DNA from: Platycnemis pennipes
Taxonomy: Eukaryota; Arthropoda; Insecta; Odonata; Platycnemididae
Direction of reading: 5' to 3'
Assembly (NCBI GenBank): GCA_933228895.1
Contig: OW121852.1
Span: forward strand, 129,265,544 to 129,329,543
Length of the DNA: 64,000 nt
Positions within the stretch are counted from its first letter, which is position 1. Each line of letters begins with the position of its first letter. Positions 2,106 through 61,886 of the stretch are shown in pieces. Both the position numbers and the translations under genes were made by a program. The notes beneath the pieces are model-generated. The model made no database searches. It had not been told where the DNA came from and saw only the letters and a program-made list of their open reading frames with translations.

Positions 2106-2141
2106 GTAAGTTTGTATTTATGCATCGTTGTATCAATTAAA

Positions 2142-18180: not shown

Positions 18181-20247
18181 CTAATTCTGCTTCGTGTGAT
18201 AAGGTTCAAAGCAATCCAAGCACAAACTTGCTGCACACGATTCACAAAAGTAACCGCTGTCTCTTCTTTTCCCGTGCTTTGTACACACTTTACACCTCTT
18301 TTGGGGCTTTGCTTCTTCCCAGTTATGGGAAAAATCTTCAGAAAATGTCTCTCTGTAAGCCGTGGAACTAAATTATCTAAAAAGTGACGGCCTGGTGCAC
18401 ATTGTCTGCCAACAATAGCATATTTCAAAAATATTTCCTCTACCAGCTGTATATGAAAGGATATGTGGTCTAAGTTTTTATTCCTATTTTCCCTGTGAAT
18501 AAAATAAGAATTTAGGACTGCTATATTCTATAATCTTCTACACAACTTCATATACCACTTTCTATGCCGTTTTCTTTCAATCAAGTACATATGCAACAAC
18601 TGGTCCTTGAGATCCACCCTGCCCATGAATTTGTTGCAGTCCAACACACAACTTACCTTTCGGGCCTCTTTTTTGCCTTTGGATACTGTTCTCATTTCGT
18701 CACTGTGGAATGTTGAGATCACGGAGACCATTTTTTTGTCCCTCCATTTGAAAACAGCAACAGGCCCAGAATGTTGTCCACACATTTCGCCCCTTTGCAA
18801 TTTCTTCTCTTCCACGATTTTCGGAACATCCTTTCTGTTCAACCTCAATGTTTCAACACAATCAGTCATGTATTTACTTTTCAGTAGTGTTGCAAGGACA
18901 GGAGAATAATAAAAATTATCAATCCAAATGCATCGTCCTTGATTTAGCAGTGGTTCAATCAGGTGTAAAACTATTGAAGTTGTCTTGTTTGTGTTGGCTG
19001 GAGTGATTTTTGAGGGAAATACAGTATCTTTTCCTGTGTACACCAGAAACGACCATAGGTAGCCGGTATATGCATCACAAAGCTAATAGGTCTTGATTCC
19101 TAACTTTGATGCCTTCAGAGGAATGTATGTACTTCTTGAAGGACAGCCTACCCTTCCATAGAGTCAATTGAAATGTTGCAATTTCGTAAAAAATGTCTGA
19201 AATTTTTCATTTAGATGTTCAATTATGGGAATTTTTTTTTCAGCTTTAGAGGACTCTGTTGATCTTCTTCCCCATTGTTGTTGAAATGAAGGAATTTACA
19301 AATTATCTCTTGAAATTACATCCGCAAAACCTGGAGTCGATATAACTCTCTTTGTGGAAAAGTATAGAATAGAATAGAATAGAATTTTTATTTGTCCACA
19401 TGATACAATACACTAGTCAAACCAGGCAGGTATATAGGACACGTCAAACATCAAAAATTAATTTGAAATATATACATATCAAATGTAAAATGTTACAAAA
19501 TGTGTGGCATCACAGTTACGTACTCAAGTACTCCTTGACACTGTAAGAACACTTTTCTACAAGGTAAGTAAAAACCATTTTTTTAAAAACAGGTATTCTA
19601 TCTTCACATTTTATATAGGCAGGTAGTTGATTATATAGTTTTGTACACATTGCACGGGGTCCTTTGGTGGTATGGGTAAAATTTTTTTGTGTAACATGTA
19701 AATCATTACACCTTCTGGTGTTGTAGGAGTGTATACTATTATTTTGTGTGAAGTCGCTAAGTGTTGGCTCAGTGGCTAAGTATACTCAAAGTGTTGGCTT
19801 CTGAACAATTCCCATGTGCATGAATAGTCCTAAGGTTATGTATAATTCTTCTGCTGTCACAGGTTTCCAAGCAGTTATTCTTGACTTTCGCAAAAAGAGG
19901 GGCTCAATAAATGAAATCTGTTACTCAGCATAATGATTCATTTTTAAAACAATTTCACGAACCAATTCCTCGTCAAAAAATAACAGAAAAATATCCACTG
20001 AATTGGACAAAGTTTTGGCCATGCCTTGAAGTCCAAAACCACCAACAAATGTATCTCTGTTACGTAAATAATTTTTTATACCCTCCCATACCAAGGTTTT
20101 GGCTTCATCCGCATCCTTAACTTCATCGTAAATTGGCTTGAGTGTATCCATTTCAGAGCGATCATTGATGTAATTTTCTTCGTCACTTTCTGAACTTGCA
20201 CTGTCATCAGAATCACTTGCAAGTAATACTTGTTTTTTCCTCGTCAC
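18181..20247 (-). pseudogene. piggyBac transposase pseudogene (copy 1)
   Basis: The N-terminal frame 20247-19921 has an acidic Ser/Asp/Glu start and FLLFFDEELVREIV, the piggyBac domain entry. After a stop it continues WKPVTAEELYITLGLFMHMG until a LINE insertion (19367-19777). The frame resumes at VISTPGFADVISRD. The block LGIKTY, stop, LCDAYTGYLW leads into 19043-18528, which contains WIDNFYYSPVLATLLK and GRVDLKDQLLHMY of the DDD catalytic domain. A last frameshift precedes the C-terminal cysteine-rich finger (CESCAASLCLDCFEPYHT), ending with a stop at 18181. Typical piggyBac order and length, but inactive. It lies in Rab intron 3, same strand as the host gene. Confidence 0.9.
19367..19777 (-). 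mobile_element. 3' fragment of a CR1/jockey-like LINE inside piggyBac
   Basis: On the minus strand the end of a LINE ORF reads HSYNTRRCNDLHV, KLYNQLPAYIK and a final KCSYSVKEYLST before a stop at 19516. About 150 bp of 3' UTR and an ATTCT-repeat tail follow. The 7-bp direct repeat AAGTATA at 19360-19366 and 19778-19784 marks target duplication, so the LINE landed in an existing piggyBac copy. A related C-terminus is at 51390-51850. Confidence 0.8.
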
Positions 20248-24215: not shown

Positions 24216-24482
24216 TCACCCATAAAGGCCGATCGCCCTGCTAAAGGCCAACAAGTCCCAGATGGGGATTTCCCTTACCTCCCTGGGTTCCAAAAATGGG
24301 GAACCCAGGTACCTGTTTCGAGTCCTCATCACCGCAGGGCACTCGCATAACATGTGGGATGTGGTTTCATCCTCTTCTTCGCACCACCTACATCTGGGGA
24401 ATCTACGATTCCCAGGAGGTGCAGGTGCCTCATCACCTGGTAGTGCCCCGTGAGGAGTCCCACTACCGTTCGTAGTTGACAC
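24216..24482 (-). pseudogene. LINE ORF2 C-terminus, out of frame
   Basis: The frame gives RFPRCRWCEEEDETTSHMLC ending in a stop at 24216. The Cys-x2-Cys and His-x4-Cys arrangement is the zinc-knuckle-like end common in these LINEs. It overlaps the end of the RT/RNase H frame, which reads the same DNA as DVGGAKKRMK. A single indel near 24.44 kb therefore separates the two parts. Confidence 0.8.
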
Positions 24483-27070
24483 CTGTTTAGTGACAGGAGT
24501 CTTTTGGCAAGCCCAGGCCTAGGCCCTTCAATGTGTAGTTTGGCCTGTCTAAGGCCTGGTGCAGCTCGCCAGATCTCAGAATGTCGGGTTAGCCCCCACA
24601 TTCTAATTTCCGCCATCCCTACCGACGAGGCAATAGGTATAATTGGCTCTGGACCAATCGGATCTCGGCTGGAACCGGCCCTTGCCAGCTCATCAGCCAT
24701 CTCATTTCCAGATATGCCTGCATGACCAGGCACCCAGAAAAGTTCCACCTTGCCGCATCTGCCTATATCATTGAGTGCCTCACGACACTCCTGCAGCAGC
24801 TGTGATTTGCACCATGGTGATGTCAGCGCCTTTAAAGCTGCCTGACTATCCGTGCATATGTGTATCGGTCTGTTAAACATCCCGATTTCCTTAATAGCAT
24901 ACGCGCAGGTCAGAAGTGCAGATACCTCTGCCTGGAACACCGTAGCATATTTTCCCAAAGGGATTGAGAGCTTCCTTGGTGTGCTACAATTGTAGACCCC
25001 TGCTCCCGCTCTTCCTTCTTTCCTAGAGCCGTCCATATACCATACCTCGGCCCCAGAATGAAGTTCTTTCCCCTTTCCTCTAGCCCACTGTTCCCTATCC
25101 GGGAAGTGGGTTTTGAAGTAGGGGGGTGTTTGGTTGAACCTGGCTATCATTCCATCACTGCCCATCCCGAGGATGGGACTCGACTTCATGAGCTCTGTCC
25201 AAACTTGTCTGTGACCATAGGAACTTCCTTTGTCATACCACTGTCCCATACATTTGAGACGATAAGCCGCTGTCCTTGCCTGCACCTCAGCTTCCACATG
25301 GAGTGGAGCGAGGTTCAGCAGCGTTTCCAGCGCCAGAGTTGGGGTTGTTCTCATAGCCCCTGAAATGCCCATACAGGCCAATCTTTGAAGGTGGTTCAGT
25401 TTGTTCCCAGCAGTTTTGAGCCGGACTCTGTTCCACCAAACTATAGAGCAGTACAAGAAGCTAGGTTTAATGACTGCCGTATAAATCCATCTAATGGCTT
25501 TTGGCTGAAGTCCCCATGTTTTACCAAGGGTCCTCCTGCACATCCATAAGGAGGCACAAGCTTTCTTTGCCTTGGTCTCCAAATGCTCTCCCCAGTTAAG
25601 CTTGGAGTCCAGAATAACCCCAAGATACTTGACCGATGGTGAGGGATATAAAACCTTTCCCTGCAAAGAGGGAGGTCTAAAGCCCTCCATTTTCCTTCTA
25701 TTGGTAAACAATACAAGCTTAGTTTTCTCCGGATTTACAGTCAGCCCTGTTTCTGCACACCACCCCATTGCCTTATCCAGGGCTTTCTGCATGAGTCCAG
25801 AGACAGTATCAAGGTACTTTCCAGTAAAGATTATAGCCACATCGTCTGCGTACCCTTGAGTGTATGCGCCAGTCCTATTCAATTCTAAAATAAGACTGTC
25901 GACTACCATATTCCAGAGGAGTGGAGATAACACTCCTCCCTGAGGGCAGCCTCGAGTCACAGCTACCTTCATTGAACTGTCTCTCAAGACTACTTTTACA
26001 GTTCTTTGTTCCAACATGTATCTAATCCAGCTCACAATGTGAGCATGGATACCATGTCTTCCTGCAGCAATGCATATTTGATCGAAGGACGTGTTATTAA
26101 ATGCTCCCTCGACATCAAGAAATGCCCCCAGTCCGTACATTCCGTGATCCAGCACTCCCTCAATCCTGCTAACAAGATTGTGGAGCGCTGTCTCCACGGA
26201 TTTTCCCTTCTGGTAGGCATGTTGATACAGGTGCAGGGGGTGATCCCTTAATGGCCCATCCCTTATGTACCTGTCAACTATCTTTTCTAGTGTCTTCAGT
26301 AGAAAAGACATCAGACTGATTCCTCGAAAGGAGTCTGCTCTTGTGTAGTCAGTCTTACCTGGTTTAGGTATGAAAACCACCTTGGTGACCCTCCAGGCTT
26401 TTGGAACATATCCATAAGCCAGGCAGGAGCGAAATATTCTTACCATTGGAAGGAGGAGCAGATCCTGCCCTTCCTGAAGGAGTGCAGGAAATACCCCATC
26501 CTCCCCAGCAGCCTTAAAGGGGCTAAAACTCATGATTGCCCATTTTGTAACTGTGTACGTCACGATGCTGGAGGAAAGTCTCCATTCTGTCCGAGCCGGA
26601 CGGATGGGATTCCTCCCATGATGCATCTCCCTCAACTCCCTGGAGCCTGGAAAGTGGGTCTCCAGCATTAGCTTTAGTGCTTCCTTGTCGGAAGACGTGA
26701 AGTCTCCCGAGGGAAGCAGCAGAGAACCCACCCCTGCTTCTGAGTCTTTCGATAGGATCTTATGAAGTCTTGCCATCTGTGGAACAGTCTCTACGCTCTC
26801 ACAGAAGCTCCTCCATGAGTCCCTTTTACAGCGCTTGATTGCTGCTTTGTACCTCCATTGGGAAACCTTAAAGTTTTCCCAATCCCGAGGCATTCTTGTC
26901 CTCTTTGCTTTATTAAAGAGTTTCCTAGTCTCTCTACGGAGACCGTCTAATTCTGCTCCCCACCAGGGTAATTTACACCCTTCCTCCCTGGTCCTTAGGG
27001 GGCAGCTGTCTTCGTAGGATGTGATGATGCTTCTCTGTAGATAATCAACAGCAGCATCTACCTCATCCAC
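24329..27070 (-). CDS. LINE ORF2: reverse transcriptase and RNase H
   Basis: 913 residues. RT: WRVTKVVFIPKPGKTDY (about residue 230), AFLDVEGAFNNTSFDQI (first catalytic Asp region), RGCPQGGVLSPLLWNMVVD, and the catalytic box GYADDVAIIFTG. RNase H: VWYMDGSRKEGRAGAGV (first Asp), ICTDSQAALKAL and FWVPGHAGISGNEMADELA. All main catalytic residues appear intact. The upstream endonuclease frame (27075-28271) is one frame off, and the C-terminus is shifted near 24.44 kb. Given the preserved residues this insertion is relatively young. Confidence 0.92.
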   Translation of the reverse strand: MDEVDAAVDYLQRSIITSYEDSCPLRTREEGCKLPWWGAELDGLRRETRKLFNKAKRTRMPRDWENFKVSQWRYKAAIKRCKRDSWRSFCESVETVPQMARLHKILSKDSEAGVGSLLLPSGDFTSSDKEALKLMLETHFPGSRELREMHHGRNPIRPARTEWRLSSSIVTYTVTKWAIMSFSPFKAAGEDGVFPALLQEGQDLLLLPMVRIFRSCLAYGYVPKAWRVTKVVFIPKPGKTDYTRADSFRGISLMSFLLKTLEKIVDRYIRDGPLRDHPLHLYQHAYQKGKSVETALHNLVSRIEGVLDHGMYGLGAFLDVEGAFNNTSFDQICIAAGRHGIHAHIVSWIRYMLEQRTVKVVLRDSSMKVAVTRGCPQGGVLSPLLWNMVVDSLILELNRTGAYTQGYADDVAIIFTGKYLDTVSGLMQKALDKAMGWCAETGLTVNPEKTKLVLFTNRRKMEGFRPPSLQGKVLYPSPSVKYLGVILDSKLNWGEHLETKAKKACASLWMCRRTLGKTWGLQPKAIRWIYTAVIKPSFLYCSIVWWNRVRLKTAGNKLNHLQRLACMGISGAMRTTPTLALETLLNLAPLHVEAEVQARTAAYRLKCMGQWYDKGSSYGHRQVWTELMKSSPILGMGSDGMIARFNQTPPYFKTHFPDREQWARGKGKELHSGAEVWYMDGSRKEGRAGAGVYNCSTPRKLSIPLGKYATVFQAEVSALLTCAYAIKEIGMFNRPIHICTDSQAALKALTSPWCKSQLLQECREALNDIGRCGKVELFWVPGHAGISGNEMADELARAGSSRDPIGPEPIIPIASSVGMAEIRMWGLTRHSEIWRAAPGLRQAKLHIEGPRPGLAKRLLSLNRCQLRTVVGLLTGHYQVMRHLHLLGIVDSPDVGGAKKRMKPHPTCYASALR

Positions 27071-27074
27071 ATTT

Positions 27075-28271
27075 CTAAACTTCTACTGAGGTGCCCCCCT
27101 CTAGGGCAGCTCCCAGCCTTTCTCGATATAGTCCCCAATTGGTAGTTCTGGGGTTTCTATATGTTATTTCCCTGTAATTGGATTCTAAAAGAGTGAAGAG
27201 TATGTGTCTGTGGTCGGACAAAGTTATCTCCCCTGACACTCTCCACCCATCAATCCTGTGCAGCAGAGAACTGGTGCACAGTGTAATATCTATCACCTCC
27301 TGCCTAATGCTGTTTGCAAAGGTAGGTTGTGATCCTTTATTGAGTATTTGTAACTCCGTAGACATAAGATACTCCAACAGTGCCTCTCCCCTTCCGTTGG
27401 TGCTTCCACTCCCCCACACAATGTGGTGCGAGTTAGCATCACAACCGATCAGAAGATCCCACTTGTTGGTCTTACAGTGACTCACCAGCCTCTCCATCTC
27501 ATTTGATGGTGGAGGAGCCGGTGCATCGTATGGCAGGTAGGAGGAGCAGATGACCACCCTCTTCCTGTTCTCACCTTCCCCCAGGGTCAGCAGAACTGCT
27601 GTCTGATCCCTAGTGGTAAATTCCGATAGATGCAAAGCACTTATCCCATTCACATAGATACAAGATCTAGGCCTATCAACAGTGGTACAGTAATATATTT
27701 TTCCGCCTGTCATGCTCAGGCCCCTGACTCTTCCCTGGAAAGCCCAGGGTTCCTGAATCAGAGCTATTTTGACCATACCTTCAGAGAGTATCCTTTGCAG
27801 AACCCCTGAGGCAGCCTTACTGTGTTGTAGGTTGGCCTGAAGCACGGCTATGCCAGCCATGGTTCGGCCCCGCCCACATCTTCTTCCTCCCTTGTCTCCT
27901 TCTCTTCGAGGGGGTATGGAGCCTTCCCTTAGGCCACTACCCACAGGGGCTCCCGAGTCAGACTCTACCCCCATGGGGGAGACCAGGCTTGGTGCCTCCT
28001 TGAAGGTGGGCCCAGAGAGGTTGAAAAGGATGTCGTCCTCCTCTCCCCACGAAGGGTATGAGGGGCAACTGAGATGTGTGGGTCTCCCAGAAGGAACCCC
28101 CACAGGCAAGGTTAAGGTAGTAGAGGGTGCGTCCCGACTGGGATCCCCATCGGGGCTCTCCACCGGTATCGCATCCCCCAAGGAAGAAGACAGACTACAA
28201 GAGTCCATGTGAAGAGTGCGCCTCTCAGCGCCCTCCATAGTTTTGTTTGAGGGTTCCATGTTTGGTCCCAC
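27075..28271 (-). CDS. LINE ORF2: APE-type endonuclease domain
   Basis: 398 codons. The first ~135 residues are low-complexity Pro/Ser/Gly. The endonuclease begins near MAGIAVLQANLQHSKAAS and has the APE-like blocks ALIQEPW (catalytic Glu), CSSYLPYD, DLLIGCDANSHHIVWGS, EVIDITLC and LSDHRHILF (catalytic Ser-Asp-His). It stops five bases before the RT frame's first Met, in a different phase. In intact relatives endonuclease and RT are one protein, so this is a frameshift. Confidence 0.9.
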   Translation of the reverse strand: MGPNMEPSNKTMEGAERRTLHMDSCSLSSSLGDAIPVESPDGDPSRDAPSTTLTLPVGVPSGRPTHLSCPSYPSWGEEDDILFNLSGPTFKEAPSLVSPMGVESDSGAPVGSGLREGSIPPRREGDKGGRRCGRGRTMAGIAVLQANLQHSKAASGVLQRILSEGMVKIALIQEPWAFQGRVRGLSMTGGKIYYCTTVDRPRSCIYVNGISALHLSEFTTRDQTAVLLTLGEGENRKRVVICSSYLPYDAPAPPPSNEMERLVSHCKTNKWDLLIGCDANSHHIVWGSGSTNGRGEALLEYLMSTELQILNKGSQPTFANSIRQEVIDITLCTSSLLHRIDGWRVSGEITLSDHRHILFTLLESNYREITYRNPRTTNWGLYRERLGAALEGGTSVEV

Positions 28272-28596
28272 GAGTAGCTAGGGAAATATGGTGTCCGCCC
28301 ATACAGAGCCCCGCATGCATGGGTAAGGCTAAATGAAACCGGAGGTCGCCCTGTATCCGGAGTCTCTCTGTTAGTGACTTCTTACCCTCCGCCCCGCAGA
28401 TGCGGTCACCCTTAGCACAGAGAAGCACCGTGGTGATGGGAGCTGTTTATTGACCGCCAGGTCTAGATCCGTCATGTTCAGCGATACCAGGGGCACCTCG
28501 AGGAGGATGTGGCTCTTCACCACGCATGACGGTCTTGGTGGTCCATAGGCATGTTCTGCCCTTGTCCCTCCCTGGAGTCACTGACCCCTTACCCCC
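28272..28596 (-). pseudogene. LINE ORF1 remnant / 5' truncation
   Basis: The minus strand shows short open stretches (LLEVPLVSLNMTDLDLAV, then KGDRICGAEGKK) that fit the C-terminal gag-like ORF1 of this LINE type but change frame. The 5' boundary at the target duplication (28596) shows that the rest of ORF1 is missing. Confidence 0.5.
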
Positions 28597-29550: not shown

Positions 29551-30084
29551 CAGGGTTTATAGGGGTTTTCATTTTCATTTTCCCTGACTTTTCCTGGATT
29601 TCCAGACCATTATTAGTGATTTTCCCTGACTTTTGAGCTCCTGAAAACTCCAAGATTTCGGTCATATAGAGATAAAAGTGGTAGCGAGGAAGCAAAAAAG
29701 TCTTAACTTATGAAAAATTGTAGGTTTCTTTTCATATGAATCATATGAACTTCCAGTAATAAGAGATCAACAACTTTAAGTCCACAAAATAGAAATTATG
29801 ATCACTTACATTGATATGCCTTCAGAAAGGGTTTTAATTGCAGAAAAATATATGCAAAGAGGGCTAACCTGGCTTTCCCTTCAAACCTGATGTCATGTTA
29901 AAGTAGCTCTTTGAATCAATCTTGATTTTTTCTTCCTCACATCCTTCTAAAAATTTGGCTAAATGAAATCAAATTTGACTGAGAATAACTTTTTTGTCAT
30001 CAGAGGGACAAAGTGAAGCATTCCTGGCAAAATCGCTAGCAAATTAAAATCAGATGCGCACACCTTTCGCCAATACCCTGATAA

Positions 30085-30790
30085 AAATAAACTCCTCCGT
30101 GGTGGGTAGACGGAGGGTAAAGGAAGGGTAGTACCCTCCATTGTGGGTAGTAACCCTCCGTCAACCCACGCTCTACCCACCATGGAGGGTAAGGGAAGGG
30201 TAGCACTACCCTTCCACTACCCTCGCTTCGAACTCCTTCACTTACCATCCATCTACCCACCATGGAGGGTAAGGGAAGGGTAGCACTACCCTTCCACTAC
30301 CCACCATGGAGGGTAAGGGAAGGGTAGCGCTACCCTTCCACTACCCTCGCTTTGAACTCCTTCGCTTACAATCCATTTACCCACCATGGAGGGTAAGGGA
30401 AGGGTAGCACTATCCTTCCACTACCCACCATGGAGGGTAAGGGAAGGGTAGCGCTACCCTTCCACTACCCTCGCTTTGAACTCCTTCGCTTACCATCCAT
30501 CTACCCACCATGGAGGGTAAGGGAAGGGAAGCGCTACCCTTCCACTACCCACCATGGAGGGTAAGGGAAGGGTAGCACTACCCTTCCACTACCCTCGCTT
30601 TGAACTCCTTCGCTTACCATCCATCTACCCACCATGGAGGGTAAGGGAAGGGTAGCGCTACCCTTCCACTACCCACCATGGAGGGTAAGGGAAGGGTAGC
30701 ACTACCCACCATGGAGGGTAAGGGAAGGGTAGCACTACCCTTCCACTACCATCGCTTCGAACTCCTTCGCTTACCATCCATCTAATCTCC
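30085..30790. repeat. Subterminal minisatellite, GGAGGGTAAGGGAAGGGTAG units
   Basis: Repeated ACCATGGAGGGTAAGGGAAG and GGGTAGCACTACCCTTCCAC, each palindromic around AGCRCT. They are combined into a longer 130-150 bp unit that also includes CGCTTTGAACTCCTTCGCTT and is repeated about five times. The ORFs across it are artefacts. It follows the left TIR of the 6.3-kb element and shares motifs with the array at its right end. Confidence 0.9.
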
Positions 30791-31918
30791 AGGTATAGGC
30801 TTTACATTATGCAAGTATTTGCACAGATATCTGTGGTATGTTTACAATATGGTGGCGAAATAATTTTTCCCAATAACCTTCTCAAAAAGTACACAAGCAC
30901 GTGATTCTTGTTGTATTAATAATAATAATCACACCAATAAACTACTTCAAATGACTATGTATCTATATAATATGATTCACTTAAATGTAATTCATTCCCT
31001 GCCAAGTTGAAAATAAAGTGTGAAACAAGTGTGCTTACACTTATTTGCACACTTTCTGCACACTTCCCTGGTCAAAACGTTCACACCTGAAGTCTAAATG
31101 GCAATATGGACGATGTGGACAATGATCTGGGCAATATGGAATAGTGTGTAGCGGGGTACATCACCACCGTCAAAAACATATGGATTGTACTTTGACCCGG
31201 GCTTCGGCATTTCCGCAGATCTGAAAATCTAAAGTTATGTTTCCAATATTTCTACCTCGTTAATCCACCCTTGAACGCTGAAGTGCAAATTGGAGCAAAT
31301 GTTTCCAGCAAATTTATTATACCCGCGGATGCTTGGACAAAAAGCCATATAAAGTAAGAGAAAGTGGACTGATTTTGCTTAAACGGCGCGCAATCATCGT
31401 AATACTTTCCGCAATTAATGGCATGCGTAAGACAGATACATGTATTTTGAGTTCATTTCAACGCTGGCGCAATCGAAATTACTAGTAAGGCGATAGCTTT
31501 CTTCCGAACTAAGCTACTTAAAATTTCATTTTTGTCGAATTAAAGTGTAATTGCCAAATTGAAATCCGTCCAAAGTGCAAATAAACCGATTTACTGCATG
31601 AAGAGTTCTCCGACGAGATTTAAAATAGCGCCGGGGAAACTTTCTTTCTTGGCCCATAGGTGGCCGAGCAATAGCGAAAAACAAATTAGCGAAACTTACA
31701 ATTAGCTGTTGTGTTCACTACGGATCCAACGATTCTATATTCATGGATCCAACTTTATTTACTCACAGTTATCTCTTTAATCTCTTTCCTTTCCTTTTAA
31801 ATACTCATTGATCCATATCGTCTTCATTTTTTTATCTTCATCTACCATTTTATGGTTCATTACCTTCACGACTTGTGATTTTGTTCAACGGTACGGCGGT
31901 TTTTGGTCACTCTTTGGA

Positions 31919-34074
31919 ATGGATTCTCTTGGGACGTTACAAACCCGTCCTCGTGGAGAAATAAGAGGAGCAGTTTCTACAACAGCAGCCTTGTTCAGAA
32001 GAATATCTTGTAAGTACTTCTTGCCTATTAAAAACTAGCACAGGTTATGTGAGTGGTAGCACGGAAAATTGCGTCAACAAATCTTCCCGAAACTGTAACT
32101 CTTAATAATAGTCGAGCATATTAAGAAAAAATGATGGATACCTTGACAATGACGCGAAGACGTTGAAATCGATTGGTAGAATAAACTTAAAATTGTGGAA
32201 TTGTACAAGGTATTTTTCTTAACGTGTTCAACGTATCAAAGTTCCATCAACTATCTCCTGCCTCCATCCGTCTAATCCATAATAATAGTATTTATTTTAT
32301 GATTATCATTCAATTTTGAAAATGGAAATTAATTTATTTGTTATTTTGACATGAAATCATTGGGGTTGATGTCTTTTTTTTTCATTTATCTTTCAAGTGC
32401 CTAAAGAGTAGCTTCTTAAGGGGCATGCTCTTCATGAAAAGGATGATGCGAGGTTTAAGGCAAAGAGGAAGTGGTGAATGACTTGAAGAGTAACAAGCAT
32501 GAGTCGCTCTCAACCTTGCCATCCACCAGCTTCAATGACAAGATGCCTTCATAGTCTGTGAAGGAAACGGAAGAAATGGAGGCTGAATTAAGAATTCACG
32601 TGCTAATAAAACTGGTAAGCTTGAATACAAGTGTATTACTGCTATTTTCTCATCATTATTTGCAATAGTAAATTCGTTAATTCATTCTCGAATTGACTCA
32701 TAACTTAGGAATAATCTTAGCCTGTCATTGGATAACTTGGGCCTTTCTAAGATGGCTGTCATCTGTTTCCATTATGTGATTTATTTTGTGTGTTATACTT
32801 ACATTCAAATTTTTATCCAACAGTCAATTAAGAATAGTGATGGATTTCTATTTTATATAGGTTACAGAGTTATCCCTCATTGAAGGGAGCTTCACAAATA
32901 ATTGTGTTGTTGGAATCGCAGTGGGCACCATGATGGACTCTTCAGCAAGTTACTTTACCTTGCTTGGCTTAAAAAAGAAGAGAGCTTTCTCACCACTTTG
33001 GATGAAAGAAGTTATCTTGTGTATGTATTTACTTTGGTTTCATATGTAAAGGCTGTAATTAATGTGCAGCACAATGCCAATACTTGTGTGTTGAAATTGT
33101 AATTTTTTACTTTGCACGGTAGTGTGCAGTCATTTTGTATATTATCCCTTAAAATGGTAGAATAGATGAGTGGTTAGGTATTTGCATAAGAGTGGAAAGT
33201 AAGAAGAGGGTTAGGACCTTAGATTTGGCATACAGGCATTTTGAATAAGAAATAATGCATGCTGATTAAGGTATTGTGGTACCTGTTGTGCCTAAAGGTT
33301 ATTAACATGTTTATAAGATCATTTCTTTTGAGTATCCTTTTTTTCATTATTTGAGAGGGAGAAATGCAATTTTTCATATGGGCATTCAGGAGTATTAAGT
33401 AAAAGACCATTTGGAGGCTGTGTATCTTACATCTAGGTCAAAGTAGACTCTTAGTAGTAGAGATGGGCAACTCGGTAAATTACCGTGGTATTTTTCATAA
33501 AAAACAACCCTGAAAATTACCATAATAAACTGTGATTTAAAGAAAAAGTTCATGTATGTTTTCTCAAATTTGTTACATTGTGGAATAATATGAGAAACTT
33601 CTTGGTTCAACTGTCTCCAGACAAAAAAGAACAGTTGACACACGTGAAATGCCTAGATTTGGGGGACTAAACTGATCAAACACATCCAATTTATAGGCTA
33701 TATTTTATTTTCAAAATAAACAGTAGAAATGTCAGTTTATCCTAAATGGAATTGATACAATAACTAGTACGTGAAATGCTTTGATTAATTTTGTCTCAAT
33801 TTAACTTTGTGGTAATGATCTTAACATGCATTTCTTTGGTAACACTTTAATTCACCTGGGGTGAAACTGGGGGCCATTGGCTGATTGACAAGTTGCCAAT
33901 TATCTGTGATAGGAAGAATGTTAATGGATTCTGCTCTTTCTGACAGGCAAACAATGGCAGGGAGCAAAAGAGAAATTATACCCATCTTCACCATAATGAG
34001 TGGAAAGACAAGGAAGACCCTGTGGAAGAGTAAATATAGAGGCCTGATATCCAAAATGTGGAAGTGCAGGAGAG
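31919..34074 (+). pseudogene. Exon-like segments inside the 6.3-kb element
   Basis: 31919-32009 opens with an ATG and MDSLGTLQTRPRGEIRG and ends at GTAAGT. 32398-32614 follows a good pyrimidine tract and ends at GTAAGC, but needs frame shifts (blocks HEKDDARFKAKRK, VVNDLKSNKHESLS, ETEEMEAELRIHV). About 32862-33017 starts after TTTATATAG with VTELSLIEGSFTNN and ends at GTATGT. 33948-34074 follows TTTCTGACAG and ends at GTGAG. Splice signals are good, but the frames do not join cleanly. Either a decayed transposase or captured host-gene exons. Family not recognised. Confidence 0.3.
33455..33660 (+). repeat. hAT-like MITE end (AGAGATGGGCAA family)
   Basis: TAGAGATGGGCAACTCGG then AAATTACCGTGGTATTTTTC. 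The same family, inverted, ends at 61886 (GTTGCCCATCTCTAG). The AGAGATGGGC tip is common in insect hAT MITEs. The right border is not clear. Confidence 0.5.
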
Positions 34075-34694
34075 GTGAGACACTTTAGTATGCCTTCCAA
34101 CCTAACTATTATAACTACTCCAACAGCAAAAATGCAGCTAGTGATTTAGTGTTAAAATGTGCCAAGTAATGAAATGGTAATGAAATAGCATGACATTTGT
34201 ACTAAGTCTGTTCTAGGCACATTTTAAATTAATGGAAACAAATGTAATAAGTAATAAAAACCAGACTAGGGAGTTTTAAAAATTATGAGATTATAATTGC
34301 CCTTTCATATTTCACAGGTGGAAATGGCTATTGATTATCAATAGAAGGGATTTAAGTAAAAATTGTTGTAGGATTTTTGTTCGTACAGAGAAGAAATTGG
34401 CTGCCCACTTCTTATCATAGTTTCCCTTCACTAAGTGGATTTTTTCTGGTTAATGGCTACATGAAATCAAAACATAGCAAACAAATTAACCAGACTTTTC
34501 CTCGGATTTCCTATGAAGTTTAGAAAGTAGATGTTCTACCTTAATGTGAGTGATTCGATTACTCCAAAGTATGCTTTGATTAATTTTTTGTAATTCTGGT
34601 AAAACTGAAAGCGGTTATAGTGAATTTTACATGTATTTTTATTGGGAACGCTTGTTCGCCTGAGGTTGTATGGGAGGCCATCAGATGGCTGCTG

Positions 34695-34765
34695 ATCAAA
34701 AAACGGAAAAATAAGTGTTATATTTTTCAAATACTATCAGATTCAGGAATATAAAAAATATTCTT
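34695..34765 (+). repeat. Right-end relic of the GGGGGCGTTTAC family
   Basis: ATCAAAAAACGGAAAAATA and TACTATCAGATTC resemble 45416-45475 just inside the right end of the MITE at 44968-45495. The terminal GTAAACGACCCC is missing. Confidence 0.45.
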
Positions 34766-35765
34766 CACTTACTCGAGTGTCCTCTGCAAATACCTCTGAA
34801 AACACATCTAAAATTAAAAATTGGCTAAAATCTTTTAAGTAGCTTCCATAACTTCGCAAGCTTGACCTCTCATGTGTCTGTAAATTGTCTGATTTTAAGT
34901 GGAAGTTTTGAGAAGGCTCTTCAATTGTGGTTTGTAATTTTCTTGAGTTAGTTGAAATATAGTTCCTGTTTGGTTATTTACATCTGCTACTTGTTTCATG
35001 TGGAGTTTACTCACCTGCCTTCAACAGAGTAGGAAAGAATTTTAGGTCTTTGGCAGGGCATGTCATAGTGAAACCTATTGTTTCGAAAACTTTACACCAC
35101 AGCACTTCTCTTTAAAGATGAAGCAAAATTTTGCCTTGCATTCAGTAATCGAAGTGCAAGTGCCACCTGTACCGATGAAGGTTTGGCAGGGTTATACATT
35201 GACCAAGATAATAGTGCATCCAAGGGTTAAAACTCTAGCCAATATAAATAACCTATCCAAAATAGAAAATTCTATTAATATGTTTTAATTATGTTACCGA
35301 AGAGTAGAAAGACTGCGTCATTTTGTATGATGGTATGAACCCTACTTAAATGCATGTGTACGCTATGAAGAAACATTTTATTTTATTAAGTTTCTTAATC
35401 TCTGTATGAATAAAGATATTAATTTTTGTCATAGGAGATGATTGTGTTTGTTATATTAATATTAAATGCCCACTAAAATTTCATAGTGATTCAAGATAGA
35501 GAATTCTATTAAATATATATATTTTTTAAAGAGATTATTGGAAGTTAATTTAATTTAAATAATTTAAACTTAACACAGATTTATTCATTCCTATAACATA
35601 CAAATTGTGCTTATCAGGTTTTATTGTTTTTTTAATGTGTTTCTTTTAAACACCCAGGTGGTTTTTTTTGGGTCGGGCAAAATAGTAACCACCCAGGAGT
35701 CTCCCTTCATTACTGCTACTGTTATTCATTTTATATGGCATCGTGTACAATATTTCTCTTCTTTT

Positions 35766-35843
35766 TTTCAGGGCCGGGATGGTATGTATGACAATTCTGT
35801 GACCTGCAATTACAGTGTAGAATTTGCTGTGGAAAACAAATAA
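35766..35843 (+). pseudogene. Terminal-exon-like segment
   Basis: After CTTTTTTTCAG the frame reads GRDGMYDNSVTCNYSV and stops at TAA within AAATAAAAG, close to a poly(A)-signal-like AATAAA. It could be the last exon of the gene-like series that starts at 31919. Function unknown and linkage unproven. Confidence 0.25.
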
Positions 35844-36134
35844 AAGTTTTATTTTTGACCACAGCCTCTTGTGTTTCATTAAACTTGTCAAATTAGTTGT
35901 GAAGTGAGAAAAATATATCTGCTATTAAATGCTAAGGGAAATACACTACCAGTCAGTGAAAGTGTTAAACTTGTATTGGATCTTTCTCCATTGCTCTTGG
36001 TGATGTAGTGTACCACTGCCTGATGAATCAGGATTCATGTAAACACGGCATACACTTTTGAAATATATGTACTACTCTGTACCTATATGATGTGAAACCT
36101 AGATTTGAAGGATAGCATTACCATTCTACAACAC

Positions 36135-36395
36135 TCAATGGAGGGTAAGGCTACCCTCCATTGAGGCTACCCTCCATTGAGGGTAGCCGTACCCTCCATT
36201 GAGGGTAGACGGAGGGTATTTTAGAACATTGGAGGGTAGGCCCTACCATCCGTGGAGGGTAGACGAAGGGTAGGGCTACCCTCCAATGTTCTAAAATACC
36301 CTCCGTCTACCCTTGCTGGAGGGTAGGCGGTGGGTAGCACTACCATCCGACTACCCTCAATGGAGGGTAAGCCTACCCACCATGGAGGAGTTTAT
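36135..36395. repeat. Right subterminal minisatellite of the 6.3-kb element
   Basis: Alternating ACCCTCCATTGAGGGTAG palindromes plus one longer inverted pair: GGAGGGTATTTTAGAACATT and its mirror AATGTTCTAAAATACCCTCC around GGGTAGGCCCTACC. It is organised differently from the left array but built from the same GGAGGGTAG word. Confidence 0.85.
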
Positions 36396-37158
36396 TTCTA
36401 TCAGGGTATTTTCACCAAATTGTGCAGACTATAGCCAGAAAGAACCAGAATAGGGCTGCCTCCTCCACAGCGAAGCCAGCCTTTGGCCAGTCATCCCCTC
36501 CTTCACCCTGCCCTCTGCTCCTATGCGCAAGGCATTTTCAGGTGATAAATTCCAAAATTTGAACATTTTGCAATTTTTCCCTGACCACACGTTAAATTCC
36601 CAGACTTTTCCAGGATTTCCATGGCTGTTTTCATTTTCCCTGACTTTTCCAGGTTCCTATAAACCCTGGGTCAGCTCTGCTGTAGATGACTCCAAGCGAT
36701 CAGCATCTTTCACACAAAGTAATAAGGTACAGCATAGCACGATATGTCTGACAATTAAGGCATTGTAGCTTTATGCTTACAACAAGGGATATGAAGTTAC
36801 ACTCACATTAATTAAATCTAAACCTACGACTTGCGGGCAGTGTGGTGTGAACTACCTGTCTCATTATTGAGTCAGACTACCTTTAATTACAAGGAGAGCT
36901 GGGCTTTACTTAAATGTAGATTGTAAAGCTTTGTTCTTGACTACTTGTCAAAAATACTAATATTTTGTGAGTAAGATTACTACTGAGCTAGCACATATTC
37001 CTCCTCTATAACTTTACGCAACACAGCATTACGACTCAAAACCTAAGAAATCAACCTCCAGTGTGATGATAGTTTAAAACTCTGGTGATAGGTTCACTAA
37101 AAGATCTTTGCTTCAGGCCGCAAGTGAAGTTGAAAAAGTAAAACTTTAAGAAAATCTC

Positions 37159-39099: not shown

Positions 39100-40482
39100 G
39101 CAATTTTTACTGATGCAATGCATTTTCTAACAGAGGTGTTAAAAAATTCACTGGAACAGAGAGATAAAAGGCGGTTAAATACCCCGGAATGCAACGTGCT
39201 AAAAAATACACCACTGAACGAAGGATCCTTGAAGTTTCAACGTGTGTTGCTTTACTGCTAACAGATATGGTATTTCGACCTTTTTCATTTCATTCATGCC
39301 AAGTGGGGTTCTATTTTGTTTGGCCAGGAATATAGTGCGGAGTGAATAATCGTGTTTGGCAACAAAATAATGTGATATCAGTGAACTTTTTCTTTTCATT
39401 TCAAATTTTGGTGACCAATAGACAGTGTCTTCGAAAATGTCGAGGAAATGCCATTGATTGTGTGTTGACGTGCTGTTGTGTAAATTTTGCATAATTTATT
39501 TGCATTGGGCTTCTGGTAAATAAAGGTATTTATTATTATATTTTTGTTATATATTGATGGTTTCTGGTGTAATTCCTGTAGAAGCAGTTGGATTTGGTGT
39601 TTTCCAGGCATTTTTGATAACCTGTTTTTCCAAACGAAACTGATAAATTGTTTTTGTGAACAGAATATTTACTGTAATACCTAAGTTTCGACTACGCAGT
39701 GTAATTGTGAGTTTACCTGACATGTCGTAGAAACATAGGTATCTTAGTTAGTATATTAAATATTAAACTACGCAGTTAGTAGTTATATTAAATACTCTAC
39801 ATGGAAAACCAAGAGTTTACTGCCTTGTTACATTATTGTGTTGACTATCGCACTACTATGAAAACTATTTTACGTTTAAATCTAGTATGCTGTAAACCTA
39901 CATTAATGGTTACCAGTAGACAACGAAAGGTGGAAATTTGCTCCATATTTCGACCACATGTAGATGTTATGTAAATCAGGATAAGACGTATACATAAGGT
40001 ATGAAGCAAACCTCATGGTCTGCTGTGTAACAGTTGTAGACGTACAAATTATGTCTACATTAGATTTGCGGCAAACTTTGTGCTCTCAGGGTGTTGTTCT
40101 ACAAAGAAGAAAAAGTTAAAAACGTCTATGATGATATGCTGGAGATAATAAAATCGGTAAGAGAAGAACTCGCTTGTTTCGCTAATTACTTACTAATAAC
40201 ATTGACTACTTACTACTCAATATTATTTTCCGAAATGGGCGCTAAGTCCACAAAAAATTAAGAGACTTTAGAATTGCATATACGAAATGCTAGCAATGCT
40301 AGGCTCGTTTTAAAGATTAATTGTAAGCGGCCAACGGCTGCACTTTCACCATGCCATTAATCGAGGCATCTAATTCTTTGCGACCGATAGGTTTATACAT
40401 CAGTTCCAAACAGAAAATTGTATGATTATAAAGGGAATAATTTCCGTTCTCATCAGTCAGTTTCATCCAAGAAATTTCATAC
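39100..40482. other. Rab intron 2, 5' part
   Basis: AT-rich sequence between the piggyBac relic and Rab exon 2 with no ORF above 100 codons and no recognised repeat. The exon 2 donor GTATGA is at 40482-40477. Confidence 0.4.
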
Positions 40483-40606
40483 CCATATGGTCAGTGTTAT
40501 TTCTTTTCCATCGATGAAAATACGCTCTTTGAAAAGATCAACACCCACGGTCGCCCTGGGACTCTGTGTTGATCCTACGTTGTTTCGCTTTAAGGCCGCG
40601 ATGATG
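40483..40606 (-). CDS. Rab-family small GTPase, exon 2
   Basis: 124 bp from acceptor CTTGTAG to donor GTATGA. The first base completes a Ser codon with exon 1. It encodes IIAALKRNN, the effector/switch I region ending in RATVGVDLF with the Thr that contacts magnesium in active GTPases, and the beta2-beta3 hairpin IFIDGKEITLTIW leading directly into DTSGQE of exon 3. The intron to exon 1 is only 96 bp; the intron to exon 3 is 16,888 bp. Confidence 0.92.
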
Positions 40607-40702
40607 CTACAAGTATAATATATGTACATCGAATGAGCAATTATTAGCTTATGTTTTGCACAGGGTAAGATGTCCCTTTTCTTTTGGCAACTTTTAACAA
40701 AC

Positions 40703-40824
40703 CTGCTTTTTCCAACGCCCGAATTTCCTACCATTACAATATTTAACACTACACGTTCTTTTTCTGCCATGGTGAAGAACTCATGGTCTTCTCTCCCGGT
40801 CCAAACGGCCGTCATCGCCGCCAT
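40703..40824 (-). CDS. Rab-family small GTPase, exon 1 (start and P-loop)
   Basis: Two ATGs with good Kozak contexts are in frame: 40824 (MAAMTAVWTG) and 40770 (MAEKERVVLN, context CACCATGG). The second gives the shorter N-terminus usual for Rabs. The P-loop follows as MVGNSGVGKSS, with the last Ser codon split by a 96-bp intron (donor GTTTGT). An uncorrected read-through of that intron turns the P-loop end into GKSRFVK, which is why this exon needs manual splicing. Exons 1-4 total 187 residues from the first ATG. Confidence 0.9.
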
Positions 40825-40968
40825 GGTCGCCTATGGGTGCGGTCCAGTTGCTGCTACTACCTTAGCTGCTACAAACGCTCCAGAGCAAAGATTATAATAC
40901 ACCTCCAGAGCGCTCGTAGCGAGTTCCAAGTCGGTCCACTTGGCGCTCCAGAGCGCTTCGGTATAGAG
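40825..40968 (-). promoter_or_regulatory. Rab 5' flank, GC-richer, with repeat-like inverted motifs
   Basis: This is the only upstream sequence of the gene before the large nested element. It contains GAGCGCTCGTAGCGAGTTCC, GGTCCACTTGG and CCAGAGCGCTTCGG. Related words (CGCTACGGAACGG, GGTCCACTTGGC) occur inverted at 54270-54360. It may be core promoter or 5' UTR, or the end of an older transposon. No TATA box is evident. Confidence 0.35.
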
Positions 40969-44469: not shown

Positions 44470-47035
44470 CACAACTTCAATTAATATTGAAGTTGTGAGT
44501 ATTTAATTGTGAAGTGTCGAAGTGTTGTGTGAATTGTGAAGTGTTGTGAGTGAGTATTGAATTGTGTAAGTGAAAACAAAGAAAGAAACAAAAATTTTGG
44601 TTGATAGGAATTTTATGTTTTTTTTGACAAAAATGTTCATTTAATGGTAGTGCTGGGAACCCTTTCTTTAACAAGTTTTTTTTCGATGTGAAGAATGGAT
44701 GGATTTGAAAATCTTGATTGGCCGGTTGTAGACCGAACCCACGACTTGATTCTTCGCATGACTGAAAAACTTCTTTCACATCCACCCTGACGGGCAGGCC
44801 GATTGCTACTTGGAGAAGTCTGTAAACATTCGGCATGATATCTTCATTTATTTCTGCTCTGACATTTTTAAGTTTGACCTCTAGTTCCTTGTTTTTTAAT
44901 ATATTTCTCAATACTGTTGCCTCGGCATTTAAGGAATGGGTATCAAGATTCAAAATTTCATTGTAATGGGGGCGTTTACTCGGAACCGAAATCGCAATTT
45001 TGTCCACGAAATTGTTAGATGGAAATGAAAAAATAAATTTGGTGAAAAAATTAATCTTCTAACCATAACCATTCACTCATAAATCAAAAATTAATATAAG
45101 CAAAAGGTGACGCCCACCGAAAAAGCTACTGTGATAACATTGACGTCATTTTCCTCCCGTCGCTGACTGCTTTCAGGGGAGGGGGAGGGAGTGGAGGGGG
45201 ATTCTCGGAAGGTCTGCTCGCACAGATGCTTTCGTAACTGCTCCGATTGGCAGTCAGCTGTGTCCCCCCCTTTGCGATAAGGCAACGTAGCTTCGCGGGC
45301 TCAGTTGTGATTGGACGAAGTCGATATACGTCAGAGGTTGCACCACACCCACTTTTCCGAAAGGGTTAAAAACACCAGTTTTTCGCCGCCTTTAACTCGA
45401 GAAATAATTGACGAATCAAAAAACGGAAAAATAGTGTCTTTTTATTTTACAAACTCTATCATATTCGGCAATAAAAAAGTATGGTAAACGACCCCATTGT
45501 TAATGAAATCTTCAGCTTCAGTCAAGTTCAACTGTGTAATGGCGTGGTAATGGCATCCGCTGCCTTTGCCAGGGGAACGGACTCAAACCTGTGCTGAAAA
45601 TGTGAAATAACGTTATCCAAAACCCTGTTGTACAGATTGATTTTCCAGTTATCTCCAGTGTTGGGGTTGGTGTCAGATGGTAGGTCGGTCAGCTGGCTTT
45701 TTCCTACGGTAGTTTCAACATAGTAAACGCTCATTTTTGCGGGCGGCTGCCGCCTTCTTTTCTTTGAGACAGACACAGGCTCTAGCAAAATGTCGTTGCT
45801 GTTCGCAAATTCTACTATCTCGGCCCATAAACCATCAAAATTATTTCTGCTCTCTGCGAAAGTAGTTTTAATGCTGGCAATAACTGAACTTGCTCTCCCG
45901 AGCGTCGCATCTGGGCCTTGTAAATACTCAGCACGTTGGTCACCGATAAAACTGAATGTATTACGAAAAGATTAACAACGAATTCATGTTGTGCTATAGA
46001 TCTCAACAAACCGATGGCCTCCACTATACCCCCATCTCGTGCAGCGTTGATTTCCTCCTCAAGGGCTTCTTTGATTGCGTTGAAGTTATTTATTACAACG
46101 TTACAATATGTGTAACGGCCGCACCATCTTGTACTACTTAAGCTCCCCATTTATTTCCCACCCTTAATGCCTAGCTTCTTTTGAATCTCTGCTAAGATGG
46201 CATGATTACCAGGTTGTGAATAGTGCATATGGAGGGCTTCAAGAGTATTGAAGAAAATGTAAGCTGACTGGACATCAGACAGCAGCCAAATTTACTTTGT
46301 GAGCTAAGCAGTGGATATAAATTGCCTGTGGGTGTAACTCTTTCATTTTCACCTGGAGACCTGAGTTATTGCCTGACATTACGCTGGCACCATCGTATGA
46401 TTGTCCAATCATTGGTATATCGTCCAAGCTGTATTTAGTTAAAAAATCTTGAATCATTTGGCTTAGCGACTCGGAATCTCTTGCTGTGGAACAATTTAAG
46501 AAACCCAGAAACCTTTTGATGGGCTCCAATCCTCTTACGTATGTACCTCAAAACTACTGACAACTGTTCTTCTTTGTAACATTTGGCTTCATCAACCATC
46601 AATGAATAAAACCCACACTCCCGCACTTCCTTTACAATTTCTTGAAGAGTTAGACCGGCTGAAACTTCTATTATTTCGTTCAGAAACGTTGGCCTGCAGT
46701 AGTTGAGTCACTGCTCAAAATGTTTTGCAAAAAAGTCATCATACTTCGCAAAAAGCTTACACAATTCAACAAAGTTTCCCCTATTCCGAGATTCAGAGCT
46801 CTCATCATGTTCTCTCAGTGGCATGCCTTGACAACTGAGATACGAAATGATGTCAGGTACTTCTGTCAAGTAACGTTTTTTTCTCTTCAATCTCTTCTTT
46901 ACGACTCTCTCGTGTACAGTACCAGACGCATTAGCCATTTGGTACCCCAGATACTTTTGATGACAATCCGAATGAGATCCTGATTTTTCGTGTTTTTCGA
47001 TCGTATCTTTTAATTTTTCCATTTGCAAAACCCCG
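44470..47035 (-). pseudogene. hAT transposase, DUF4371 / hAT dimerisation domains, broken
   Basis: From the N-terminus: end of a TTF-type zinc finger (TIEKHEKSGSHSDCHQKY), the DUF4371 start NFVELCKLFAKYD, LMVDEAKCYKEEQLSVVLRY, GQSYDGASVMSGNNSGLQVK, YIHCLAHKVNLA, SSTRWCGRY and the region AMSVYYVETTVGK-like to 45528. The MITE (44968-45495) follows, then NVYRLLQVAIGLPV. The hAT signature CERSFSVMRRIKSWVRST is present near 44.7 kb but in a shifted frame. Multiple stops and shifts. Proteins of this type are commonly annotated zinc finger MYM-type 1-like. Inactive. Confidence 0.88.
44968..45495 (+). mobile_element. Complete MITE of the GGGGGCGTTTAC family
   Basis: The left tip GGGGGCGTTTACTC pairs with the right tip GTAAACGACCCC. 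Flanks ATTGTAAT (44960-44967) and ATTGTTAAT (45496-45504) look like an 8-9 bp target duplication with one indel. It interrupts the hAT transposase frame between KSQLTDLPSD-containing sequence and IAISVPSKRPHYNE. The left 300 bp match 1724-2020, where a THAP gene follows, which suggests a deletion derivative of a THAP-encoding (P-like) element. Confidence 0.8.
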
Positions 47036-47481
47036 TTTAAATGACCCTAGGCCCCCCCCCCCCCCTAGAGTTCTGGGGGGGTCCCCCAGAAGGGAATTTT
47101 TAACCTTCTTCTTAACCTTCTTTACTAACTTGCGTTCACACGAGCCACAAATTCAGGTAACCTGCGCCAAACCTAGTAACTCAATGCTGGTAAAATCAGT
47201 TTACCAGTGTTTCTCCAAGCTGTGTTCATAGGACGAACTTGATACTCAAGTTACTAGCATATAGGCGCGGGTTACTGGCTTTCTAACCTAGTAGTGTGAA
47301 TGGGGCCAAAGGGACCGCACCGCCGTGCTATGGCTCCGCCGCAGACGAGCGGTTGCCAGCGCTGTGTGAAGCGTGGCCACCACAATTTCGATTCGTCAAA
47401 AATTTCTGGGGGGGGCCACGAGCCTTCTGGGGGGGGCCGGGCCCCCCCAGGGACCCCCCTAGCTACGCCCATGTGAAAAGT

Positions 47482-59790: not shown

Positions 59791-59799
59791 TGACATGAA

Positions 59800-60010
59800 G
59801 CACGCTTCTTATAACACTAACAGATATTTCTATAAGACTCATATGGCTTCTCATTACACTAACAAGTAATCTGATAAGTTCTAATGAGGAGTCTCATAAG
59901 TTCTCAAAGCTTCTCATAAACTTCATTAAGAATTCATGCTTCTCATAAGATCTCATAGCTTCTCATAAGATCCCATAACTTCTCAATAGATATTATGAGA
60001 AATATCTATG
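59800..60010 (+). repeat. Degenerate tandem repeat, CTTCTCATAAGATCTCATAG
   Basis: Roughly 20-bp units such as GCTTCTCATAAGATCTCATA, varying in length, repeated about ten times. It ends in a palindrome around ATATCTATGAGAAAT. No coding role. Confidence 0.65.
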
Positions 60011-61679: not shown

Positions 61680-61886
61680 GTAACCAAAATCGTTTTAGCT
61701 ACTCAATTTATAATATCATCCATTCCAATGGTTTCTTCCTGAGGAAGAAATTTTCTGAAAAATAACTTTTCTGATAATTACCATTTATTACGGTAATTTT
61801 CAGGGGCGTTGGTAGCTTACGAAAAATACCACGGTAATTTCCGAAAATTACCGTGGTAATTTACTAAGTTGCCCATCTCTAGTTAT
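61680..61886 (-). repeat. hAT-like MITE end (AGAGATGGGCAA family), inverted copy
   Basis: It ends AATTTACTAAGTTGCCCATCTCTAG, the inverse of the tip at 33455. Both carry the neighbouring motif ATTACCGTGGTATTTTTC (inverted here). The opposite terminus was not found. Old, truncated. Confidence 0.5.

What the first reader, a model, noticed from the sequence alone, without database searches (positions are those of the whole stretch)
30073..36409. Unassigned 6.3-kb DNA element with subterminal GGAGGGTAG minisatellites
Long TIRs (about 37 of 39 bp), a nearly perfect 8-bp duplication (TTTCGCCA/TTTCACCA), two different subterminal arrays built on the same word, and exon-like segments with good splice sites but no recognisable transposase. 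This combination does not match a family I can name and is the best candidate in the window for an undescribed transposon type.
Basis: partly seen in the sequence, partly recalled or inferred. Interest (0 to 1): 0.75.

Follow-up and report, generated by a model that had tools for sequence, protein, structure and literature searches.

The report
Non-autonomous CACTA-type (TRC) DNA transposon
The 6.3-kb element is one young copy of a jumping-DNA family that has no transposase gene of its own and probably moves with the enzyme of a 19-kb relative in the same genome, so it belongs to a known animal branch of the CACTA transposons and is not a new type.

Summary
In further copies from the same 1.79-Gb genome (20 fetched) the three outermost bases of the supposed TIR vary. 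The true ends are CCCTGATARAAATAAACTCCTCC (window 30076-36406). The duplication is 2 bp: 12 of 12 two-ended copies match, TA in the window. The "8-bp duplication" is chance; 0 of 8 copies checked show it. CCC ends plus a 2-bp duplication are the published marks of TRC elements, the animal branch of the CACTA (En/Spm) superfamily. A 19,030-bp relative with the same ends carries an open 795-codon frame that passes Pfam's cut-off for Transposase_21 (tnp2). It shares co-linear DNA with the 6.3-kb family, whose 20-copy consensus has no frame above 117 codons. Best reading: a non-autonomous derivative, probably moved in trans. Copies are 1-3% from the consensus, so spread is recent. The subterminal arrays are more orderly than reported: in the arrays read, most TACCC/GGGTA words sit on an 11-bp grid in either orientation. 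New member of a known kind; modest interest.

The parts
30076..36406 (.). whole element, 6,331 bp, corrected limits
   Evidence: boundary shared with other copies
30074..30075 (+). target duplication, left copy (TA)
   Evidence: 11 of 11 two-ended copies match at 2 bp
36407..36408 (+). target duplication, right copy (TA)
30076..30109 (+). left TIR, CCCTGATAAAAATAAACTCCTCCGTGGTGGGTAG
   Evidence: 32 of 34 match the right arm
36373..36406 (-). right TIR
30103..30780 (.). left subterminal array; 52 TACC[CA] words on both strands counting the terminal one at 30074, 41 of 51 gaps exactly 11 bp after orientation correction; 124-bp higher-order repeat
36119..36380 (.). right subterminal array, same word, other higher-order sequence; 22 words counting the terminal one, 15 of 21 gaps exactly 11 bp
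36190..36325 (+). hairpin inside the right array (-62.8 kcal/mol as single-stranded DNA; 200 shuffles mean -18.6)
30790..36110 (.). interior, shared within the family, no long frame in the consensus
31143..31342 (+). segment co-linear with the 19-kb relative (88%)
33675..34608 (+). segment co-linear with the 19-kb relative (86%); holds the exon-like stretch 33947-34074
34688..34891 (+). segment co-linear with the 19-kb relative (86%)
34884..36125 (+). segment co-linear with the 19-kb relative (84%)
30065..30072 (+).

Best explanation
It is a non-autonomous member of a TRC-type (animal CACTA / En-Spm superfamily) transposon family. Shown: ends beginning CCC, 2-bp target duplication, many near-identical copies with a shared interior, no long frame even in the consensus, and a 19-kb relative with the same ends that carries a Transposase_21 frame and shares co-linear DNA. 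Inferred: the 6.3-kb form arose from such a large element by internal deletion and divergence. It moves by cut and paste with the relative's transposase supplied in trans. The transposase, or a TNPA-like partner, binds the TACCC words of the subterminal arrays, brings the two ends together and cuts at CCC, with a 2-bp stagger at the target. The arrays keep most words 11 bp (about one helical turn) apart whichever way they point, so neighbouring bound proteins would sit on nearly the same face of the DNA.
For: Left-end search: 273 candidates, 40 scored, all 40 (window included) at 97-100% identity. Ends: 19 of 20 fetched left ends and 10 of 10 right ends start CCC; L030's left end is altered. 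2-bp duplication in 11 of 11 two-ended copies incl. the window, plus TC/TC in the 19-kb copy. Interior found in 19 of 20 fetched copies (L012 has only array). Consensus of 20 copies: longest frame 117 codons. Substitutions from consensus 1.0-3.1% in the 20 copies measured. 19-kb relative: 795-codon frame stop to stop, first Met at residue 39; PF02992 Transposase_21 31.9 bits over cut-off 28.6, PF06869 DUF1258 31.7 under cut-off 33.1; D-x-M-H-x3-L-G present (4 of 2000 shuffles have it), core of motif I D-G...W-P-I (0 of 2000), C-x-x-C, two Asp 87 apart. Co-linear segments of 202, 972, 206 and 1,275 aligned bases at 85-90% to the consensus. No other inverted ends with a 2-bp repeat were found just around the frame (138 seeds, none with CCC plus matching dinucleotide). 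TRC marks: CCC, 2-bp duplication, Transposase_21 (PMC1636069; PMC4298943). Arrays on an 11-bp grid: window right array more regular than 500 of 500 random placements; same grid in 20 of 20 fetched left arrays (70-88% of gaps exactly 11) and 10 of 10 fetched right arrays (79-100%), and in both arrays of the 19-kb copy (121/161, 68/73).
Against: Only one transposase-bearing copy was read; a genome-wide search for others did not complete. Its 19 kb include at least one nested insertion of about 2.35 kb in the left array (arrays at 54-2366 and 4694-5008; inverted flanks), so other nesting, even of the frame itself, is not fully excluded. The Transposase_21 score is modest; motif I and motif A in their strict published form are not met. 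The structure model was useless (mean pLDDT 34). tblastn of the frame finds nothing in the window or the 20 fetched copies. About 2.3 kb of the interior (consensus 1360-3700) has no counterpart in the 19-kb copy, so simple deletion is not the whole history. Binding to the arrays and movement in trans are not shown. The grid test shows order, not binding; tandem growth alone could spread an 11-bp register.
Confidence: 0.93

Rival explanations
1. An 8-bp-duplication transposon (Mutator/Phantom/Spectre, hAT, P, Merlin, Zisupton) with subterminal minisatellites.
For: TTTCGCCA/TTTCACCA matches at 7 of 8; minisatellites are reported in Rehavkus and aphid Phantom elements and 8-bp duplications in Spectre (PMC6446971). 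I held this view until.
Against: 0 of 8 copies with printed flanks have an 8-bp repeat; the bases between the 8-mer and CCC vary; the relative's frame is Transposase_21.
Confidence: 0.02
2. Two independent MITEs flanking unrelated host DNA.
For: The two arrays differ in higher-order sequence.
Against: No inner TIR; the same interior lies between the same ends in other copies at 1-3% from the consensus.
Confidence: 0.01
3. A Pack-type element: part of the interior (at least consensus 1360-3700) is captured host gene DNA with exons.
For: Exon-like segments with splice sites (3 vs 0.68 expected, P 0.06) and a slight excess of medium frames (P 0.02-0.03); this stretch is missing from the 19-kb copy.
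Against: No protein match among those the search admits by length (2,098 candidates, none E<=10) and no Pfam hit; the exon-like segment 33947-34074 lies in DNA shared with the 19-kb relative, so that one is transposon DNA.
Confidence: 0.15
4. The arrays are passive: they grow by slippage or unequal exchange and bind nothing.
For: Word counts vary widely (17 to 192 exact words in the left arrays of the 20 fetched copies); tandem growth alone can hold a register.
Against: Two arrays of different sequence keep the same 11-bp grid regardless of word orientation; subterminal motifs bind TNPA in plant CACTA elements (PMC2613891).
Confidence: 0.2

Closest known systems
TRC elements of animals (SmTRC1 of Schistosoma mansoni; Tribolium 5.2 kb, Aedes 9.2 kb) - PMC1636069
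   Same: TIR starts CCC, 2-bp duplication, Transposase_21 domain with a D-x-L/M-H-x3-L-G motif, a tandem-repeat region inside SmTRC1
   Different: The window copy has no transposase; its relative is 19 kb; long subterminal arrays on an 11-bp grid are not mentioned in the passages I read
Spongebob (EnSpm-4N1_HM of Hydra; also in insects) - PMC4298943
   Same: CCC ends and 2-bp duplication in the Hydra element, assigned to TRC; short non-autonomous forms in the three other species of the passage
   Different: TIR sequence differs (CCCAGCC...); non-autonomous forms of about 0.4-0.5 kb
Plant CACTA: En/Spm, Tgmt* - PMC2613891, PMC8978399
   Same: Asymmetric subterminal regions of one short motif in both orientations, stem-loops, tnp2 transposase, non-autonomous copies moved in trans
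   Different: CACTA ends and 3-bp duplication; motif 12 bp (En-1) or 17-20 bp in soybean; no counterpart of TNPA recognised here
Galileo (P superfamily) - PMC3688188
   Same: Internally repetitive ends with several binding sites for one protein domain
   Different: P-related transposase with a THAP domain, TIRs over 1 kb

Membership tests
TRC / animal CACTA | TIR begins CCC | tested here: met
   window both ends, 19 of 20 fetched left ends (L030 altered), 10 of 10 right ends
TRC / animal CACTA | 2-bp target duplication | tested here: met
   11 of 11 two-ended copies incl. window; 1 of 1
TRC / animal CACTA | Transposase_21 (PF02992) domain in the autonomous partner | tested here: met
   31.9 bits over cut-off 28.6, in the one 19-kb copy read
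TRC / animal CACTA | transposase in this very copy | tested here: not met
   it is non-autonomous; a non-autonomous copy need not have it, and membership rests on ends, duplication and DNA shared with the 19-kb copy
TRC / animal CACTA | motif [LVI]-D-x-[LM]-H-x3-L-G of animal/fungal TRC | tested here: inconclusive
   all fixed positions but the first (P instead of L/V/I); strict pattern not met
TRC / animal CACTA | motif I with D-G-x3-[FY]...W-P-[ILV] | tested here: inconclusive
   D-G and W-P-I present, F/Y replaced by G, first position F; strict pattern not met
TRC / animal CACTA | transposition by the partner's transposase | not testable with these tools
   needs an excision assay
Mutator (Phantom, Spectre, Rehavkus) | 8-11 bp duplication | tested here: not met
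Mutator (Phantom, Spectre, Rehavkus) | MULE transposase | tested here: not met
   none in the element; the relative's frame hits PF02992 and PF06869 (and PF12171 at E 0.22), not MULE
hAT / P / Merlin / Zisupton | about 8-bp duplication (recalled for P, Merlin and Zisupton; hAT also in titles and abstracts) | tested here: not met
Plant-type CACTA | CACTA terminal core and 3-bp duplication | tested here: not met
   CCC; 2 bp

The most novel reading that the evidence does not exclude
The ends are length-variable protein scaffolds: a transposon-encoded protein binds TACCC words set 11 bp apart in either orientation, and copies gain an edge over others by enlarging these arrays (17 to 192 words in the left arrays read), so array size sets how well a copy competes for transposase.
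Probability: 0.2. Interest if true: 0.5.

Novelty: new member of a known kind. Interest (0 to 1): 0.3.

Why it matters
It gives a young animal CACTA/TRC family with a large transposase-bearing relative in the same genome and very regular subterminal arrays, a good system to ask whether animal TRC ends work like the TNPA-bound ends of plant En/Spm.

Tried and rejected
Rejected: 8-bp-duplication families, after copies were read; two MITEs. Reading the array frame as a protein to find other arrays found nothing. Joined exon-like fragments found no relative. TIR and array words in viral and GTDB contigs gave 0 hits or 3 short matches whose surroundings are not like the element (I take them for chance matches in bacterial or phage DNA). 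DNA search of phages: none. Transposase search of viral contigs: none. PDB by sequence: none. Paper search for the TIR and array letters: 67 papers, the 20 listed show no transposon paper by title. A first phase test without orientation correction gave an unclear best period of 10.15-11.25 bp; corrected. Structure model of the 795-aa frame discarded. tblastn of that frame against the window and the 20 fetched copies: none.

Not settled: number of transposase-bearing copies; origin of consensus 1360-3700; the host's name (arthropod-like, an inference from the insect names among relatives of its LINE).

Full report
Observation. The inverted pair is real (38 nt, 95%) and its end pattern occurs only at the two ends in the window. 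The two arrays hold 23 of the 25 TACCCTCC words in the window. No Pfam family appears in six frames of 30800-36100 at E<=1. The 8-bp match next to the ends (7 of 8; chance about 5e-4 for a given pair of flanks) looked convincing, and on it I first considered Mutator-type families, which in insects can have minisatellites and 8-bp duplications (PMC6446971: passages and section 6 part 1; PMC3169594: passages).

Copies. After many unanswered requests the genome search returned 273 candidates for the left end, of which 40 were scored; all 40, the window included, match at 97-100%. I fetched 20 of the other 39. In the 19 left ends printed the three bases before CCCTGATA vary widely. 19 of the 20 left ends and 10 of 10 right ends found start CCC; L030's left end is altered. 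Eleven two-ended copies (10 fetched plus the window) all have a 2-bp repeat directly outside CCC...GGG; the other 10 of the 21 showed no right end in the stretch fetched. A twelfth, the 19-kb copy, has TC/TC. None of the 8 pairs printed has an 8-bp repeat. So the element is 30076-36406 with TA as duplication. Left-flank dinucleotides are mixed (TA 6, AA 4, TT 4, others 7, of 21 including the duplicated locus L021/L022), so it is not a strict TA inserter.

One family, one interior. Family interior is found in 19 of 20 fetched copies, in some only in part (L012 has only array). Per-copy substitution from the consensus is 1.0-3.1%, median 1.3% for the 15 copies with more than 1,500 bases aligned. 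The consensus (19 fetched copies plus window; L022 dropped as the same locus duplicated beside L021; depth 10-19 along the element) has no frame longer than 117 codons. The exon-like segments therefore do not become a gene when private mutations are removed, although the window copy has slightly more frames of 50-60 codons than shuffles (P 0.02-0.03). One exon-like segment (33947-34074) lies within DNA shared with the 19-kb relative.

The partner. Pairing the left-end list with the right-end list (191 candidates, 40 scored) pointed to a pair 19 kb apart on C4. It was read in two adjacent pieces. It has the same TIRs, larger arrays and a 795-codon open frame, stop to stop, on the strand opposite to the family's left-to-right direction. 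Its left array is split at 2366-4694 by what looks like a nested element with inverted flanks, so 19 kb is more than the family's own length. A scan for inverted ends just around the frame found no pair with CCC and a matching dinucleotide, so there is no sign that the frame itself is nested. The frame passes the Pfam cut-off for Transposase_21, the tnp2 family (31.9 vs 28.6 bits), and comes just below it for DUF1258. The D-x-M-H-x3-L-G stretch that DeMarco and colleagues give as special to animal and fungal TRC proteins is there except for its first residue; D-G and W-P-I of motif I, C-x-x-C, and two Asp 87 apart (80 in the paper) are there; the strict forms of motifs I and A are not met (PMC1636069 section 9). 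The 6.3-kb consensus shares four co-linear segments (202, 972, 206, 1,275 aligned bases, 85-90%) with it (the window copy directly: 84-88%). Consensus 1360-3700 has no counterpart in this copy.

Assignment. PMC1636069 (passages and section 9) and PMC4298943 (passages) give CCC ends and a 2-bp duplication as marks of TRC elements in the CACTA superfamily. SmTRC1 itself showed the 2-bp repeat in 7 of 14 copies. The marks are met, directly for the ends and duplication, and through the 19-kb relative for the transposase.

Arrays. With one fixed offset for reverse words, 41 of 51 gaps in the window's left array and 15 of 21 in the right are exactly 11 bp. For the right array 0 of 500 random placements, scored with the same choice of offset and period, are as regular; for the first part of the left array P is 0.002. 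The grid holds in 20 of 20 fetched left arrays (from 28/40 to 90/102 gaps exactly 11) and 10 of 10 fetched right arrays (23/28, 19/23, 109/114, 37/45, 35/38, 35/40, 23/29; 33/37, 37/44, 23/23), and in the 19-kb copy (121/161 left, 68/73 right). Array length varies from 17 to 192 exact words on the left. Single strands of three stretches fold far better than shuffles. Plant En/Spm has the same plan, with TNPA bound to subterminal repeats and a 12-bp motif in En-1 (PMC2613891 passages; PMC8978399 passages); in Galileo tandem repeats of the ends bind the THAP domain (PMC3688188 passages). I infer a like role; it is not shown.

Mechanism. Shown: ends, duplication, many copies, youth, missing transposase, transposase-bearing relative. 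Inferred: supply in trans, binding of the words, synapsis, cut at CCC, 2-bp stagger. Confidence 0.93 in the assignment, about 0.6 in the array-binding step.

Novelty. A new family of a known kind. I searched the paper library for the TIR and array letters (20 of 67 papers listed) and for subterminal-array and CACTA terms and saw no paper describing this family in the listings; most subscription papers and Repbase are not held, so it may be named there.

Noticed in passing
57753-60540: A second element with TRC marks: ends CCCCAGTAGCC, flanking CC/CC, subterminal arrays of CCAATATTGGCTA-type words at both ends. Assigned only by its ends in one copy; the C-rich ends make the exact start ambiguous.
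   Followed up: partly
48304-51147: Foldback-like element: about 1.29-kb inverted arms at 93% around about 0.3 kb, with a 10-bp near-repeat GCTCCAGGCC/GCTCCAGACC beside it; no Pfam hit at E<=0.01 in six frames. One copy only, so the duplication may be chance as it was for the finding.
   Followed up: partly
52862-53298: About nine copies of a 47-bp unit with a perfect palindrome TTCGGTACACCCATATATGGGTGTACCGAA.
   Followed up: no
24329-28277: LINE on the minus strand with endonuclease and RT-RNaseH frames; one named relative is a Lian-Aa1 protein, which I recall as LOA clade.
   Followed up: partly
18528-19082: piggyBac-type transposase fragment (DDE_Tnp_1_7; PDB relative piggyBat).
   Followed up: no
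40477-40830: Minus-strand frame with a weak Ras-family match just over the cut-off (22.5 vs 21.6 bits), possibly a host gene exon.
   Followed up: no
46708-47046: DUF4371 fragment (34.6 vs 32.1 bits), a domain I recall from hAT-type proteins.
   Followed up: no
33458-33546 and 61767-61881: A repeat of about 90 bp inside the element also occurs, inverted, elsewhere in the window.
   Followed up: no
L020 (C4:3369584 and C4:3374747): Two right ends 5 kb apart lie on the same side of one left end; DNA like the element's own array edge follows the first right end, as in a tandem or nested copy (98-type coordinates).
   Followed up: no
L021 and L022: Two left ends with identical flanks 15 kb apart on C44: a segmental duplication that holds the element.
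   Followed up: no
L032 2340-4700: A nested element of about 2.35 kb with long inverted flanks (GGGTGGTCCATATCTGCAAAGTGGGTAAAAATGCGAGGG...) inside the left array of the 19-kb copy.
   Followed up: no
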